A DNA stretch of 23,025 nt from Acanthamoeba lenticulata (Eukaryota; Discosea; Longamoebia; Acanthamoebidae). The position numbers were made by a program, and so were the translations under genes. Shown piece by piece: positions 5,182-19,910 of this stretch. The first letter of the stretch is position 1; every line of letters begins with the position of its first letter. The stretch covers positions 1-23,025 of the forward strand of contig NAVB01000999.1 in NCBI GenBank assembly GCA_002179805.1, given 5' to 3'. Below the pieces are notes generated by a model. The model did no database searches and was not told where the DNA came from. It worked only from the letters and a program-made list of their open reading frames with translations.

Positions 5182-6498
5182 TCAGTTGTCCATGAGGAAG
5201 GCGGTCCAGTCGTCCTCGAGCGGCAAGGCTATCTCGACCGAGGGAGGCGACGAGGGACCGGCGGGCATGGCCACGTAGAGCGGGAGCTGCTCGAGGCCGC
5301 CGCACGACGACGGGTAGGCCGAGTAGGAAGTAGGAGCACCAGTCGACTGGGCGGGCGCATACATGGACGCGTCGACCGAGGAGCACATGCCGACCGAGGC
5401 CGGAGTGGTCATCTCCTCAGGCAGCCAGGTAAGGGGCTCCTGCTTAATGTAGGCGACATCGTCGACGGGCGGCAGCTGGTGGTGCGAGACGACCTGCTGC
5501 GAGGCCTTGCTGGCGGCCTGGCACTGATCGCAATAGAGGCAGCCGGAAGCCGACGCGGCCGTCGGGATAACGGGCATCTCCAGGCAAGGCTGCTGCTCAG
5601 ACGTCGAGACAAGCATCTCGGGCTGGATCGGGTTGGAGAGGAACATCCACGATGTGGGCGAGGTGGAACGCGACGAGGTGCCACCGGGCGAGGCAGGCGC
5701 GCCGAGGGGAGCAGCCGCCATGGTCGACTGGTGCGGCATCACGGGCGAGGCCATGGTGGCCGAGCCGTTGCTGCCGGGCATGAGGCAAGCCAGGTAGGCC
5801 ATCTCGTCGTTCTCACCGAACGAAGGGGTCGACTGGCAGGCCGGGGCTGAGGCGCTGAGGAACATCTTGGCCTCCTCGGGGCTACACGGCGAGCTGAAGC
5901 CAAGGTCGGAACCGTCGCTGGGCGAGTCGGGCAGGAGACCAATCTCGTCACCAGTCGGGAAAGCACGCTCCTCCTCCTGGTTCATGGAGATGCGCTGAAG
6001 GTGCGTGTAGTGCTGTTGTTTCATAACGCATAACGCCTTATTAGTAAATTTACCCGGCGCTTTGGAGGAAAAAAAAGCGGACAATTATGATAAAATTTCG
6101 GACAATAACAAAAAATGAAGTGGGTGTTGTACCTGCTTGGTGTGGCCGCGAGGTCCCTTGCGGTTGCACTTGATCGAGGGGAAAGCGCGCTTGACCAACT
6201 TGCCGAAGAACGTGGGCGAAATGAGCGGCTTCTTGGTCACCTGCTTGGTCACGTTGAGGTAATGGTTGTAGACGCTGCGCTTGCTCATGGATCCAGACGA
6301 GCCAACCATGTAGTTCTCGCGCAACCTGGAAGATCAAACAAAACGAAGCGTTAGCGTGTGTGTTGGTTGAGACAAACAGACCAAGACGTGGTTGAGAGCT
6401 CACCAGAACACAATGTGGTTGGCGTGCAGGCGTCGCTCCAGGTTGTCCATGAGCTGCTTGTGCTGTTCCCTCTCACCGTCGGCAACGCAGATCCTCAT
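5182..6498 (-). CDS. RFX-type winged-helix transcription factor (RFX-A)
   Basis: Three exons, 6498-6404, 6325-6133 and 6012-5182, give 372 residues. Residues about 28-101 are an RFX DNA-binding domain: VFWLRENYMVG, then SVYNHYLNV, SPTFFGKLVKRAFPSIK and RKGPRGHTKQHYTHL. This matches the canonical order WLxxNY, xxYxxYxxxC, FGKxxRxxFP, RRLGxRGxSKYHY. RFX proteins bind X-box DNA through the winged helix. The remainder is a long Ser/Pro/Ala-rich region with scattered acidic patches, ending in EDDWTAFLMDN, a possible acidic-aromatic activation motif. No RFX dimerisation region is evident, so it is a short-form RFX. The start is the first ATG upstream of the domain, with a plausible short 5' UTR. 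It is transcribed away from its relative RFX-B at 7884. Confidence 0.85.
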
Positions 6499-6598
6499 TG
6501 TGTGATGTGTGTGGTGGTGGTAGCTCGACAAAAGAAGAAGATCTTGTTTGATGCAAGCGTTCTTTCAGCAGAATAAATATTTGAAACGATGGGCGTTG

Positions 6599-6617
6599 CT
6601 CTCTCTCTCTCTCTCTC
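6599..6617 (+). repeat. CT dinucleotide microsatellite
   Basis: Nineteen bases of uninterrupted CT, reading GA on the sense strand of RFX-A, about 100 bases upstream of its ATG. It may act as a promoter-proximal GAGA-like tract or may be simple slippage. Confidence 0.8.
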
Positions 6618-6971
6618 GCACAGAGATGGACGTGTGGCGCGTGAGAGGGTGGCGTGGGAGCGAGGAAGCAAATGCACTGCAAACGGCTCAGCTGTCTGAG
6701 GGTGGTTTGGTGGTGACGAAGAAGAAAAGAGTCAGCTAAGACAGGCCGCTTTTATGCCCCAGAAGCAGACGTTGCCTGCCGACAAATAATGTCGATGGGC
6801 TATTAATTAGCGAGGACTGTTATCATAACTGTCGACTGCTTCCGGTAAGCCCTTTTCCTTATCTCCCCAAGTCCGAGGACGAAAACTCCTGGCGAGGTGG
6901 TGGAGCCACGCAGTTTCTTGCTTTTTAGCCGGTTTAGGAGGCATGAAAGGGCAAGTTAAGATGGCTGTCAA

Positions 6972-6983
6972 GGCCAATTGGCC
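6972..6983. promoter_or_regulatory. GGCCAATTGGCC palindrome (overlapping CCAAT boxes)
   Basis: A perfect 12-bp palindrome containing CCAAT on both strands, in the divergent RFX promoter. CCAAT is the NF-Y recognition core in many eukaryotes; use here is inferred. Confidence 0.45.
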
Positions 6984-7009
6984 ACACGTGCGTTTTATTG
7001 CGCCTATGC

Positions 7010-7033
7010 CATTGGTCATGCATCGGACCAATG
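7010..7033. promoter_or_regulatory. CATTGGTC-N8-GACCAATG inverted repeat
   Basis: Perfect 8-bp arms at 7010-7017 and 7026-7033 around ATGCATCG. Each arm contains a CCAAT-type core. The same seven-base core pair, ATTGGTC and GACCAAT, recurs at 8340-8359 with a six-base spacer. Confidence 0.5.
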
Positions 7034-7247
7034 AAAGGGTTTGAGCAACGCGGAATGTGACGAATGTCCTCCCCTGTCACCTCATGTCGCGAAGGTGGCG
7101 CGAGGCGGTGCGGCCTCGTGTTGTGCCGCACAATGCGCGTGGCAAGGAGGGGACAAGGGGAGGGAGGCGTTTACGGTCGGTTGTGGGGTAAAACGAGAGA
7201 ACGAAGGTCTAGTTCGAGAGCGTTCTCTCAGAGGTGACCGTAGCGCG

Positions 7248-7269
7248 TTGCCGCAACCCTTCGTTGCGG
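7248..7269. promoter_or_regulatory. X-box-like GTTGC/GCAAC cluster
   Basis: Around 7248-7269 lies GTTGC-C-GCAAC, immediately followed after five bases by GTTGCGG. CCGCAAC (7251-7257) and GTTGCGG (7263-7269) are a perfect 7-bp inverted repeat. RFX factors bind X-boxes of the form GTTGCC...GGCAAC, so three half-sites are present in a promoter flanked by two RFX genes. The spacing is tighter than the classical X-box, so binding is only a proposal. Confidence 0.45.
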
Positions 7270-7883
7270 GTATTCTGCGGACGGTGCGACTGTTCAGCCA
7301 ATGGAGTTAACTCCCGTCATTCAGGTGACCAGTACCCGAGCGCCGCCAAGCACACGCCAGCTGCCACCTTAACCACCCGTCTGCGACCTCTGCCGCGGGA
7401 CACAGCAGCCGGAGAACAGGCAGTCACAAGGGCGACCGTCCCCTCGACACGTATCTGTTCAGGGCGACTTTCTCGGTGAACGGGGGCTGTAGGGGAGGCT
7501 GGTTTTCGCGCAGCGCTCGCTTGTGGTTGGCCCGCGCGAGGTGACGCGCTGTTGGACCCAGTCTCCCGTGCGCGCGGTTGGTCGCGAAGCACGCTCGCGG
7601 CTGCTTTGACGACCGGACACGACACACAAAATCCGGACAGACGAGGCCAAAAGCGCAGCCGAACCCACCTGGCGTTTCAACTCCTCCTCCCACACCCCGC
7701 CCCAAGCAGCAGCACACGAACGCGAACCCTCTTCGCACAAAAGAGTCAGTTCGCTCCCGCACAACAACAGCAGTCAACTCTCTCTTTCCCTAGGACGCGC
7801 GGCTCTCTACCGTTCTCTGCGCCCTTCATCGCTTCAAGAACACACAAGCACCCTACACACACATACCCTACACACATACAAAG

Positions 7884-9387
7884 ATGAAGAGGAAGGCCAC
7901 TGCCGCGCCCGCCAGCCCTAAGCAGCCCAAGGTCGCCAAGAAAGAGACCGAAGAGAAGCAACTCGTCGTTATTCAATGGTACACACAGCTCGCGAGAAAA
8001 ACACAAACCCCTAAAAGAACGAAAACGACGACCTCGAGGACGAGAACAAGTTTACTCACGTTTGTTTCTTCTTCTTCTTCTTCTTCTTCTTCTAGGTTGC
8101 GCGAGAACTACTACCTTGGCACTGGTGGCTCGACCCCCAAGGCCCTTCTCTTCCAGGACTACTTGGACATGTGCCGAAGAGAGAGTCTGGACGCCACTTC
8201 CAACTCAGCCTTTGGCAAGCTCGTTCGCACGTACGTGGACCTCCTCCTCCACCACCACTACACCCCCAATTCCACACACCCTTGGGTCGACCTCCTGTCG
8301 TCTTGTGTCTCACAGGAGTTTCGCTACTTCCCCGTTCTGATTGGTCGGAGTTGACCAATCCCAGCGTAACATTTAATTAATATTCATGTCTCCGGTGTGT
8401 AGGGCTTTCCCGGGCGTGCAGTCCAGCAGGAAGGGCCCACGCGGCGCTGCCAAGCACCAGTACAAGAACCTCCTGCCCATCGGTGAGGGCCCTCGCCTCG
8501 CCCTTGCCTCGGCCGATGCCGCCATGGCCCTCGCGCCCCTCTGCAGCGCTTCGTCCTCCGAGGAGGACGAGTACGAGGAGGAGATTTCGTCGTCCTACAC
8601 CTACTCGGCGGCCTTTGGCGACTCTTCGTCCTCGTCCTCGCCGTCCGCGTCGCCGCACCACTACCTGGCCGCCCACTGCCAGCCGCCCTGCGCCGAGCTG
8701 CCTCCTCGGCCGGTCTACTTTGCGGGCGCGGGCGCCAGGGCCTCGTCGCCGCTCTCCTCGGCCCACGGGGAGGAGGGCCACGAGCTCCAGGCCCACGGGG
8801 CGTCCTCGCCGACGCTCTCCATCTCGTACTCGTCGACGCCCGCCTCGTCCCCTGTCGTGCTGACCTCGGCCGAGTGGATGCCGCCGATGACGGACAACGT
8901 TGTGCACCACCAGCAGCAGCCGTTCCTGGGGCCCCAGATGCAGCCCTGCCAGCAGCAGTGCTGCAGCGCGGCGATGATGGTGATGCCCTGGAACTACCGC
9001 TCCTCCTCCATGGGGCAGCTCGAGCTCGAGCAGGTCCCGTTGGACAGCAGCAGCAGCAGCAGCAGCGCCAGCTCGTCGTTCGACGACCTCCTCGATGCCT
9101 ACGACGCCGAAGCGGCGGCGGCGGCCTCGGGCCCGCAGGGCATGTGGGACGGCGACGACGTCGAGTCCTTCTTCTCGCTCACGCCCGCCGCGGCGCCCTA
9201 CCAGCTGTCGTCCGGCCACTACGCCTCGATCCCCGCGGTCGACTTTGGTGTCGTCGGCGGCCCTGCGGCCGAGCGACGAGACGAGGAGGCCCAGTTGATG
9301 TGGTGCAGCCGCTCGAGCGTGGAGGACATCCTCTCTGCCAGCAAGGGCGAGGAGTGGATCAGCAACCTTCTCCAGGGCTGCAACTGA
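7884..9387 (+). CDS. RFX-type winged-helix transcription factor (RFX-B)
   Basis: Three exons, 7884-7978, 8096-8230 and 8403-9387, give 404 residues. Residues 28-100 form an RFX DNA-binding domain: VIQWLRENYYLGTGG, ALLFQDYLDMCRRE, SAFGKLVRTAFPGVQ and RKGPRGAAKHQYKNL. A basic KRKATAAPASPKQPKVAKK leader precedes it and could be a nuclear localisation signal. The long tail is Ser, Ala and Gln rich with acidic runs, and ends in KGEEWISNLLQGCN. Exon 1 is exactly 95 nt, as in RFX-A, and intron 1 interrupts the same Trp codon in the same phase. The second introns differ: here after VRT, in RFX-A after HTKQ. Intron 1 ends in a long TTC tract. The protein is probably a nuclear regulator; targets are unknown. 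A Ser-AGC repeat (about 9047-9070) encodes a polySer run. Confidence 0.86.
8066..8093 (+). repeat. TTC trinucleotide tract in RFX-B intron 1
   Basis: An almost pure TTC run ending two bases before the 3' splice site AG at 8094-8095. It forms an exaggerated polypyrimidine tract. Confidence 0.8.
8339..8360. promoter_or_regulatory. GATTGGTC-N6-GACCAATC inverted repeat in RFX-B intron 2
   Basis: Perfect 8-bp arms, 8339-8346 and 8353-8360, around GGAGTT, inside the 172-nt second intron (8231-8402). The core repeats the element found at 7010-7033 in the shared promoter. It may be a CCAAT-type enhancer or an intronic RNA hairpin. Confidence 0.5.
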
Positions 9388-17010: not shown

Positions 17011-19910
17011 ATGCAGCAGGATCTCACTCACCTTTGCATCAACACCATCCGTGCGCTGAGGTACGCGCTCAGCCACTCTTGATGCACTCCGCGACCTTTG
17101 GATAATATACGAACGTTCAGAAATCGGTTGATCTGAATTTTGATGTAGATTGGACTTACGCGCTTTTTCTTCGCTTGCAGCGCTGACCAGCCCCAGGCTG
17201 CCAACAGCGGTCACCCTGGCGCCCCGATGGGCATGGCGCCCATGGCTCACATTCTCTGGACTGAGTTCATGCAGTTCAACCCAGCCAACCCCAGATGGGT
17301 ATGTCATTCGCGATAATAGCCTAGCCTTTTAGAAATCTTGTTGCTCATTCACCTTCCTTCTGCTCCTTCAGGTGAACCGCGACAGGTTCGTGCTCTCAAA
17401 CGGCCATGCCTGCGCGCTCCTCTACTCCATGCTGCACCTCACTGGTCATGACATGACCATTGACGATCTCAAGGTCTGCTCTTCTCTTCCTTCCTTTCCT
17501 CCTCCCGCACGCTCACATCAACACTCGATCCACAACAGAAATTCCGCAAGGTGGGCAGCAAGACCCCCGGCCACCCCGAGTCCTTCGAGACGCCCGGCGT
17601 GGAGGTCACCACCGGCCCCCTCGGCCAGGGTAACCTCTTCTTCCTCTACACCCCCCCCCCCTTCTTACAAGTGTGCGGGCGCTGACAACGCGACCGCGAT
17701 GGTCGGATTCCAGGTCTGTCCAACGCCGTGGGCATGGCCATCGCTGAGCGCCACCTGGGTGCGCGGTACAACCGTGAGGGCTTCCCCATCGTGAGCAACC
17801 ACGTCTACGTGTTCTGCGGCGACGGTTGCCTGCAGGAGGGCGTCACGTCGGAGGCCTCGTCCATCGCCGGCCACCTTGGCCTGGGCAACCTGATCGTGCT
17901 CTACGACGACAACCTCATCACCATCGACGGCGAGACCGACCTCTCCTTCACTGAGGATGTCAAGCGCCGCTACGAGGCCTACGGCTGGCACGTCCAGGAG
18001 GTGGCCGACGGCAACCACGATCTCGACGGCATCCGCCGCGCCATCGAGGAGGCCAAGAAGGTCACCGACAAGCCCTCCATCATCAAGGTCCGCACCACCA
18101 TCGGCTTCGGCTCCAAGAAGGAGGGCACCGAGGGCGTCCACGGCAGCCCGCTCGGCGATGACGACCTCGCCAGCGTAAAGACCAAGCTCGGCCTCGACCC
18201 GGCCCAGAAGTTCCAAGTCCCCGAGGATGTCCGCAAGTTCTACGCCCAGTTCGCGACCAAGGGCCAGGATCTCCAGAAGCAGTGGGAGGAGCTCTTTGAG
18301 GCCTATGCCGCCAAGCACCCCGAGCTCGCCGCTGAGTTCCGCCGCCGCATGGCCGGCGATCTGCCCGAGGTCGGCCTTTCCTCCTCCATCTTCATGTTAA
18401 CGATGATCCGAATCTCACATTCGACACCGCCGTGTGCAGGGCTGGGAAGCCGTTCTGCCCCTCAACAAGCCTGGCGGCGCCGAGGAGGCCACCCGCAAGT
18501 CCTCTGGTACCACTGCCATCATCTTTATCAACATCTTCATTTCCTTTAACTTCGCGGTGAACGCCACACAGGTGTGTGCCTGAACAAGCTCGCCGAGCTG
18601 CTGCCCGAGATCGTGGGCGGGTCGGCTGACCTGAACCCGTCGACGCTGACGTACCTGACCTGCTCCAAGGACTTCCAGAAGGAGACGCCCGAGGGCCGCA
18701 ACATCCGCTTCGGCGTGCGCGAGCATGCCATGTCCGGTACTCGACCAGCACACAACCATCTTCATCTTGCTCATCACCATTTTGACCGTCATCTTCTTCT
18801 TGTTGTTGTTGTTCTTGTTGGTGAATGACAGCCATTTGCAACGGTCTGGCTGCCTATGGTGGGTTCATCCCGTTCGGAGCGACGTTCCTCAACTTCATCG
18901 GCTACGCGCTGGGCGCCGTGACGCTGTCGGCGCTGTCGCACCTGCAGGTGCTCTACATCATGACCCACGACAGCATCGGCCTCGGCGAGGACGGACCCAC
19001 GCACCAGCCCGTGGAGAAGTTTGTCGTGTGCCGCTCGACCCCCAACCTCCAGTTCATCCGCCCGGCCGACGTCACCGAGACCGCCGCGGCCTACATCGCC
19101 GCCCTCCGCAAGAAGCAGGGCCCCACCGTCATGGCCCTCTCCCGCCAGGTATCACTCGCTCGCCATTAGCCCGTTTTATTCGCTTTCCATTTGTGCTGCT
19201 GTTGCGTTGCAACAATACTAACCCCACGTGTGGCGGCGACGAATCAGAACCTGCCGCCGCAGAAGGGCAGCTCGATCGAGGGCGCGCTCAAGGGCGCCTA
19301 CACCATCGAGGACGTGGAGGGCGGCCAGCCCGACGTCATCCTCGTGGCCACGGGCTCGGAGGTGCCCATCGCCGTGCAGGCCGCCGAGACCCTGAGGTCG
19401 CAGGGCAAGAAGGTCCGCGTCGTGTCGATGCCCTCGTGGGAGCTCTTCGAGGCCCAGAGCAAGGACTACAAGCACTCCGTCTTCCTCCCCGGCGTCCCGG
19501 TCGTCTCCATCGAGGTCCGTCTCTTTCCTCCTTAATTCTATAATTTAAATCATTTTGTTATTTAAAAAGTATTATCTTTCCATTTATATATGTATTAATA
19601 TTATTACCATAGGCTGGCAGCACGCTGGGATGGGATCGCTACGCGCACGCCTCGGTCGGCGTGGACAGGTTCGGCGTGTCGGGCCCCTACAAGGATGTAC
19701 GTCTTTCTTCCTCTTCTCTCTTCCTTCTCCTCGTTATCGCCACCGCCACATCGACAACATCAACTTTGACTTCTCACGACAACATAACAACAACAACAGG
19801 TCTACAAGTACCTGGGCATCACGGCCGAGCATCTCGTGGAGAAGGCGCAGGCCGTGCTGACCTACTACGCCAACCACCCCGTGCCCACCCTCATGCGCCC
19901 GGCCTTCTAA
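17011..19910 (+). CDS. tkt: Transketolase (EC 2.2.1.1)
   Basis: Eleven exons, 17011-17060, 17181-17298, 17372-17473, 17539-17629, 17714-18369, 18440-18506, 18572-18736, 18832-19148, 19248-19514, 19613-19696 and 19800-19910, total 675 residues, the normal family length. It transfers two-carbon ketol units in the non-oxidative pentose-phosphate pathway using thiamine diphosphate and a divalent metal. Key motifs are present: SGHPGAPMG (His28), [12 protein letters not shown], the ThDP/metal signature GDGCLQEG (156-163) continuing to DDNLITIDG, the catalytic Glu412 in FGVREHAM, and GEDGPTHQP (His474). The C-terminal domain ([19 protein letters not shown]) is intact. The reading frame has no breaks. 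No targeting presequence is seen, so it is probably cytosolic. Intron 4 contains a long C run. The common metal-loop Asn of DNNxI is Asp here (DDNLI), a mild variant. Confidence 0.97.

What the first reader, a model, noticed from the sequence alone, without database searches (positions are those of the whole stretch)
5182..9387. Divergent pair of related RFX factors sharing one intergenic region
Both genes encode an RFX winged helix starting at residue 28, and both read WLRENY, FGKLV, AFP and RKGPRG in order. Exon 1 is exactly 95 nt in each, and intron 1 splits the same Trp codon in phase 2, so common ancestry by inverted duplication is well supported. The second introns differ (after HTKQ in RFX-A, after VRT in RFX-B), showing intron gain or loss since the split. 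Head-to-head RFX paralogues with one shared promoter are not something I know to be described.
Basis: partly seen in the sequence, partly recalled or inferred. Interest (0 to 1): 0.75.

Follow-up and report, generated by a model that had tools for sequence, protein, structure and literature searches.

The report
Two neighbouring amoeba RFX genes
Two genes for RFX-type DNA-binding proteins lie head to head in an Acanthamoeba-like genome that carries dozens of RFX genes; the shared features that made them look like a special duplicated pair are common in that family, so the pair is a fairly ordinary part of a known expansion.

Summary
The Acanthamoeba-like genome has 94 exon-level PF02257 matches; I resolved 70 RFX loci in 54 clusters. 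The split-Trp intron is in 56 of 70 loci (41 of 54 clusters), so it is an old family trait, not evidence for an A-B duplication. Three other clusters carry the cited motifs; A and B are each other's 11th-best match of 47. In trees A groups with other paralogues and B is an orphan; sisterhood is not supported, but AU tests do not reject it (p 0.131, 0.189). Outside the DNA-binding domain the proteins are unrelated. Both genes are intact and on a second haplotype. Simple tests show no single shared promoter in the 1385-nt gap. The genome has ten RFX pairs within 10 kb, two of them head-to-head. RFX expansion in Acanthamoeba is published (22 genes). Verdict: ordinary, low interest.

The parts
5182..6498 (-). 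RFX-A gene, 372 aa, exons 6498-6404, 6325-6133, 6012-5182
   Evidence: homologues P0001-P0008
6326..6403 (-). RFX-A intron 1, phase 2 in the Trp codon (position shared by 56 of 70 loci)
6013..6132 (-). RFX-A intron 2, phase 0 after HTKQ
   Evidence: P0002 reads HTKQHYTHLQ without interruption
6499..7883 (.). intergenic region between the two start codons, 1385 nt; no tRNA, Rfam match or canonical X-box found
6574..6579 (-). TATA-like TATTTA, first base 81 nt upstream of the RFX-A ATG (motif match only)
7884..9387 (+). RFX-B gene, 404 aa, exons 7884-7978, 8096-8230, 8403-9387
   Evidence: homologues P0012-P0017
7979..8095 (+). RFX-B intron 1, phase 2 in the Trp codon (position shared by 56 of 70 loci)
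8231..8402 (+). RFX-B intron 2, phase 2 in the residue before AFP; same position in C217, C374 and C439:24310

Best explanation
Two distinct, intact RFX transcription factors in which the DNA-binding domain is the only recognised domain, both members of the large lineage-specific RFX expansion of Acanthamoeba-like amoebae. Shown: intact gene models, the RFX domain, more silent than replacement change per site between haplotypes, homologues in other sources, and the split-Trp intron shared by 56 of 70 loci. Inferred: each protein binds X-box-like DNA through its winged helix and acts on its own target genes through its own C-terminal segment, which ends in an acidic-hydrophobic stretch in each but is not shared between them. 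Inferred: the pair arose by local spread of RFX genes, probably before the sources sampled here diverged, rather than by a recent inverted duplication. Inferred: each gene has its own promoter at its end of a 1.4-kb gap.
For: PF02257 in both and no other Pfam family at E up to 1. Sequence match to human RFX1 (1dp7, E 2.2e-12 for B, 8.2e-11 for A) and RFX5. 94 PF02257 exon-level matches in the genome, 70 resolved loci in 54 clusters. Split-Trp acceptor in 56 of 70 loci. Ten RFX pairs within 10 kb after merging haplotypes: 2 head-to-head, 7 tandem, 1 tail-to-tail. BLASTP between A and B finds only the DNA-binding domain. Haplotype pN/pS 0.13 for A and 0.31 for B. Published: 22 RFX genes in A. 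castellanii (PMC4053784, passages seen), lacking the dimerisation domain and domain C of other RFX proteins (PMC3493443, one passage seen).
Against: AU tests do not reject A+B as one clade (p 0.131; p 0.189), nor B joined to A's 13-row clade (p 0.316); 72-86 columns give little power. Adjacency of two family members is itself some evidence of a common local origin. No binding or expression data were available. pN/pS rests on 10 substitutions in each gene.
Confidence: 0.75

Rival explanations
1. A and B are the two products of an ancient inverted (head-to-head) duplication of one RFX gene that has diverged almost beyond recognition as sisters.
For: Adjacency: several neighbouring RFX genes in this genome are near kin, e.g. 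C301 (93/84), C439 (97/88*), C84 (100/98*) and C337 with C194 (98/83*). Both A and B fall in the same half of the tree, 97/90*. A+B is not rejected. An 18-nt exact match spans the exon-2 acceptor in both.
Against: Not sisters in either tree. A lies in a 13-row clade without B at 96/87*, although that clade is not recovered as such with exon-1 residues added. Mutual identity rank is 11 of 47. B shares its second intron position with C374, C217 and C439:24310 rather than with A. The exon-1 sequences show no likeness by eye. Neighbours need not be kin: the two C1732 genes fall far apart.
Confidence: 0.3
2. The gap is one bidirectional promoter that co-regulates A and B.
For: Divergent arrangement, present on both haplotypes.
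Against: 1385 nt between start codons, long for a gene-dense genome (own judgement). TATA-like site 81 nt from A only, and no shared 10-mer between the two 700-nt upstream stretches. No canonical X-box. No co-expression data.
Confidence: 0.12
3. Chance neighbours: two RFX lineages brought together by rearrangement.
For: They belong to different sub-lineages in the best trees and their C-terminal regions are unrelated.
Against: With 54 clusters in 48.5 Mb, fewer than one chance pair within 10 kb is expected (about 0.6, own estimate), against 10 seen.
Confidence: 0.25

Closest known systems
RFX gene expansion of Acanthamoeba castellanii (22 RFX genes, Clarke et al. 2013, PMC4053784)
   Same: Same family in a close relative; RFX-A has a clear homologue in strain Neff (P0002, 73% identical over the whole length)
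   Different: This genome shows about 54 RFX-domain clusters; in two searches the only proteins named as Neff that were returned for RFX-B were P0018 and P0002, matching over 18-24% of the query
Animal RFX1/2/3 and RFX5/7 transcription factors
   Same: Winged-helix DNA-binding domain, aligned over its length
   Different: No other Pfam domain in A or B; human RFX1 and RFX5 group with other genes of this genome (C715, C805), not with A or B
Head-to-head RFX pair at C32:101587-/102605+ (= C1545)
   Same: Divergent RFX neighbours, on two contigs
   Different: Closer (1018 nt between domain starts, 1773 for A/B), and both genes fall in one six-gene clade, 95/84*, though not as sisters

Membership tests
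RFX transcription factors | RFX winged-helix DNA-binding domain (PF02257) above the curated cut-off | tested here: met
   A 52.6 bits, B 57.1 bits, cut-off 27
RFX transcription factors | binding to X-box DNA | not testable with these tools
   no binding data
RFX1/2/3-type animal RFX | further conserved domains (B, C, dimerisation) after the DNA-binding domain | tested here: not met
   only PF02257 found in A and B at E up to 1
Acanthamoeba RFX expansion | phase-2 intron in the domain's Trp codon, frequent in this genome's RFX genes | tested here: met
   A and B are among the 56 of 70 loci that have it
recent inverted-duplicate pair | A and B sisters, closest to each other | tested here: not met
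   rank 11 of 47; not sisters in the best trees; AU tests do not reject sisterhood, p 0.131 and 0.189
bidirectional promoter pair | short shared promoter and co-expression | tested here: inconclusive
   1385-nt gap without a shared element by simple tests; expression not testable

The most novel reading that the evidence does not exclude
An ancient head-to-head RFX pair kept together because both are driven from one regulatory gap, with short gene-conversion exchange between the inverted copies: 18 identical nt span the exon-2 acceptor, and RFX-B reads WLRENY like RFX-A although its three homologues that cover the site read WLRQNY or WLRQHY.
Probability: 0.07. Interest if true: 0.4.

Novelty: new member of a known kind. 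Interest (0 to 1): 0.2.

Why it matters
It removes a misleading argument: in this family a shared first intron and shared motifs do not date a duplication. It also shows an RFX repertoire about twice the size published for A. castellanii, with many local clusters, a usable system for studying how a transcription-factor family expands in an amoeba.

Tried and rejected
Sister relation of A and B: looked for in two trees and two AU tests; not supported, not rejected. An AU test joining B to A's 13-row clade gave p 0.316. Two scans of viral contigs (P0012, P0002) gave 4 and 301 pattern matches and no confirmed relative. X-box search: none in the window with up to 3 mismatches to one 14-base consensus; none in the gap by a degenerate two-half-site pattern; half-sites in the gap 2 against 1.5 in mononucleotide shuffles. 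tRNA and Rfam (gathering) scans of the window were empty; the tRNA scan used bacterial settings. A bacterial-type promoter scan of the gap is uninformative for a eukaryote. Paper searches: 'Acanthamoeba, RFX, transcription factor' 5 papers; 'Acanthamoeba, RFX' 7 papers; 'RFX, head-to-head, paralog, bidirectional promoter' 1 paper, listing only; 'RFX, Amoebozoa, expansion' 7 papers; encystation terms, 79 papers of which 12 were listed. One search was the only search aimed at head-to-head RFX genes, and only this open-access library was searched, so I make no claim that such pairs are undescribed.

Dropped rows: of 94 PF02257 matches, 4 rows were not carried into and 9 lay on stretches not held, leaving 81 rows and 70 loci. 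Six doubtful or broken domain models were left out of the trees, among them one member each of the C497 and C1457 pairs, so the kinship of those pairs was not judged. The A model used had one extra Gln from a hand-made join (373 aa); the corrected 372-aa model was used from then on. One search used wrong exon edges for A, so its A counts are void; one search replaces them. One search did not find the second-haplotype file; one search repeated the comparison.

Full report
What is there. The window (contig C742 of a 48.48-Mb genome in 1825 contigs) carries two divergent RFX-domain genes. RFX-A runs on the minus strand from ATG 6498 to its stop at 5182, in three exons (6498-6404, 6325-6133, 6012-5182; 372 aa). 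RFX-B runs on the plus strand from ATG 7884 to 9387, in three exons (7884-7978, 8096-8230, 8403-9387; 404 aa). Both carry PF02257 and no other Pfam family at E up to 1, and both match human RFX1 and RFX5 by sequence.

Are they real genes? Homologues exist for both. RFX-A: P0002 of A. castellanii Neff, 73% identical over the full length, and P0001, 92% over 88%. RFX-B: P0012-P0017. P0002, P0003, P0012, P0013 and P0014 read through the proposed joins, several from contigs with little room for introns, e.g. P0012 (374 aa, longest contig 1444 nt), P0013 (382 aa, 1302 nt) and P0003 (349 aa, 1791 nt). A second contig, C608, carries the region at 96.2% identity. Between the two copies RFX-A has 7 silent and 3 replacement changes and RFX-B 5 and 5, plus 12 nt of length change in exon 3 of each (pN/pS 0.13 and 0.31). 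Both look maintained, on small counts.

Why the duplication argument fails. The genome holds a large RFX family: 94 exon-level PF02257 matches, down to weak ones (E up to 10). I carried 90 rows forward; 81 lay on DNA I held and gave 70 loci in 54 clusters at 90% domain identity. An in-frame AG|G acceptor at the split Trp codon is present in 56 of 70 loci and 41 of 54 clusters. Among the 45 clusters whose domain start was resolved it is 41; of the four exceptions, C301:20002 also shows AG|G there, while C905 and C707 have an unbroken Trp. The intron is thus an old family trait. The motifs LRENY, FGKLV, AFP and RKGPRG occur together in A, B, C497, C1008 and C1258, 5 of 54 clusters. The 95-nt exon length holds in A homologues P0002, P0003, P0005 and B homologues P0012, P0013, but B homologue P0014 has 92 nt, and A's wider relatives P0018, P0009 and P0010 have 62, 47 and 56, so its equality in A and B is more likely coincidence than descent. 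The three RFX-B homologues that cover the site read WLRQNY or WLRQHY.

Second introns vary freely in this family: 14 position-and-phase classes among the cluster representatives as spliced by script, doubtful ones included. B's position (phase 2, in the residue before AFP) is shared with C217, C374 and C439:24310; C374 is one of A's two best matches (63.4%). A's phase-0 intron after HTKQ was seen in A only; C1008 has one in phase 1 of the next codon.

Relationship. By domain identity A and B are each other's 11th-best of 47 within the genome (42.3%). In a 59-row tree A lies in a 13-row clade of mostly NRKGPRG types (96/87*) without B, and B forms only its own homologue clade (100/98*). With 14 more columns from exon 1, A again groups with P0018, C905 and its homologues (91/74), B stays apart, and the 13-row clade is not recovered as such; A and B share the larger half of the tree against the RFX1/RFX5-like half (97/90*). 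Forcing A and B together costs 13.05 and 15.35 log-likelihood units, AU p 0.131 and 0.189; joining B to A's 13-row clade gives p 0.316: not supported, not excluded. Outside the domain BLASTP finds nothing of note.

The neighbourhood. RFX genes in this genome often lie close together: after merging haplotypes, 10 pairs within 10 kb, of which 2 head-to-head (this one and C32/C1545), 7 tandem and 1 tail-to-tail (other genes between them were not excluded). Chance would give fewer than one (about 0.6, my estimate), so local duplication is at work in the family, and head-to-head order is one of its outcomes. Some close pairs are near kin in the tree (C301, C439, C84, C337), the C1732 pair is not, and the C497 and C1457 pairs were not judged. 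For the given pair, either an old local duplication or later shuffling within the family remains possible.

Shared promoter. The start codons are 1385 nt apart. The gap was found twice in the genome, here and on C608. It has no tRNA or Rfam hit and no canonical X-box. A TATA-like TATTTA lies 81 nt upstream of RFX-A; none of the scanned TATA forms lies on the plus strand in the gap, and the two 700-nt upstream stretches share no 10-mer. Nothing here shows one promoter; no expression data were available.

Literature. Clarke et al. 2013 report 22 RFX genes in A. [quoted passage not shown] In my tree two genes of this genome group with human RFX1 (C715, 98/91*) and RFX5 (C805, 99/80*), which differs from a plain out-group, but only two human rows were used. 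A 2012 paper notes that the A. castellanii Rfx lacks the dimerisation domain and domain C (PMC3493443, one passage seen); in A and B too no domain but PF02257 was found. [quoted passage not shown] RFX factors appear among host genes in a cluster of the megavirus-infection transcriptome (PMC11464507, one passage seen). The encystment atlas has no 'RFX' in its main text (PMC9283445, term search). The count of about 54 here is larger than 22 but rests on exon-level matches, a partly two-haplotype assembly and a 90% identity threshold, so it is approximate.

Verdict. These are two members of a known lineage-specific RFX expansion.

Noticed in passing
G000:C32:101372-102730 (L006), also C1545 (L005): A second head-to-head RFX pair, 1018 nt between domain starts, with both genes in one six-gene clade (95/84*, 94/85) though not sisters in the best tree (AU test of sisterhood p 0.241): perhaps a better candidate for an inverted duplicate with a shared promoter than the given pair.
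   Followed up: partly
window 6310-6327 (minus strand) and 8094-8111 (plus strand): 18 identical nt (AGG plus the codons for LRENY) span the exon-2 acceptor of both genes, while the other LRENY genes shown use other codons; codon bias, chance or a short conversion tract.
   Followed up: partly
G000, 54 clusters: RFX repertoire about twice the 22 genes published for A. castellanii; two members (C715/C1560 and C805) group with human RFX1 and RFX5.
   Followed up: partly
G000:C646:28028-28228: An RFX domain with an in-frame stop codon, possibly a pseudogene or an assembly error.
   Followed up: no
window 17686-19169: Transketolase gene pieces in separate frames (PF00456 E 1.9e-92, PF02779 E 1e-32).
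   Followed up: no
database searches for RFX-B: No A. castellanii Neff protein close to RFX-B was returned, although RFX-A has a clear Neff homologue; loss, a missed annotation in Neff or the search's length limits.
   Followed up: partly
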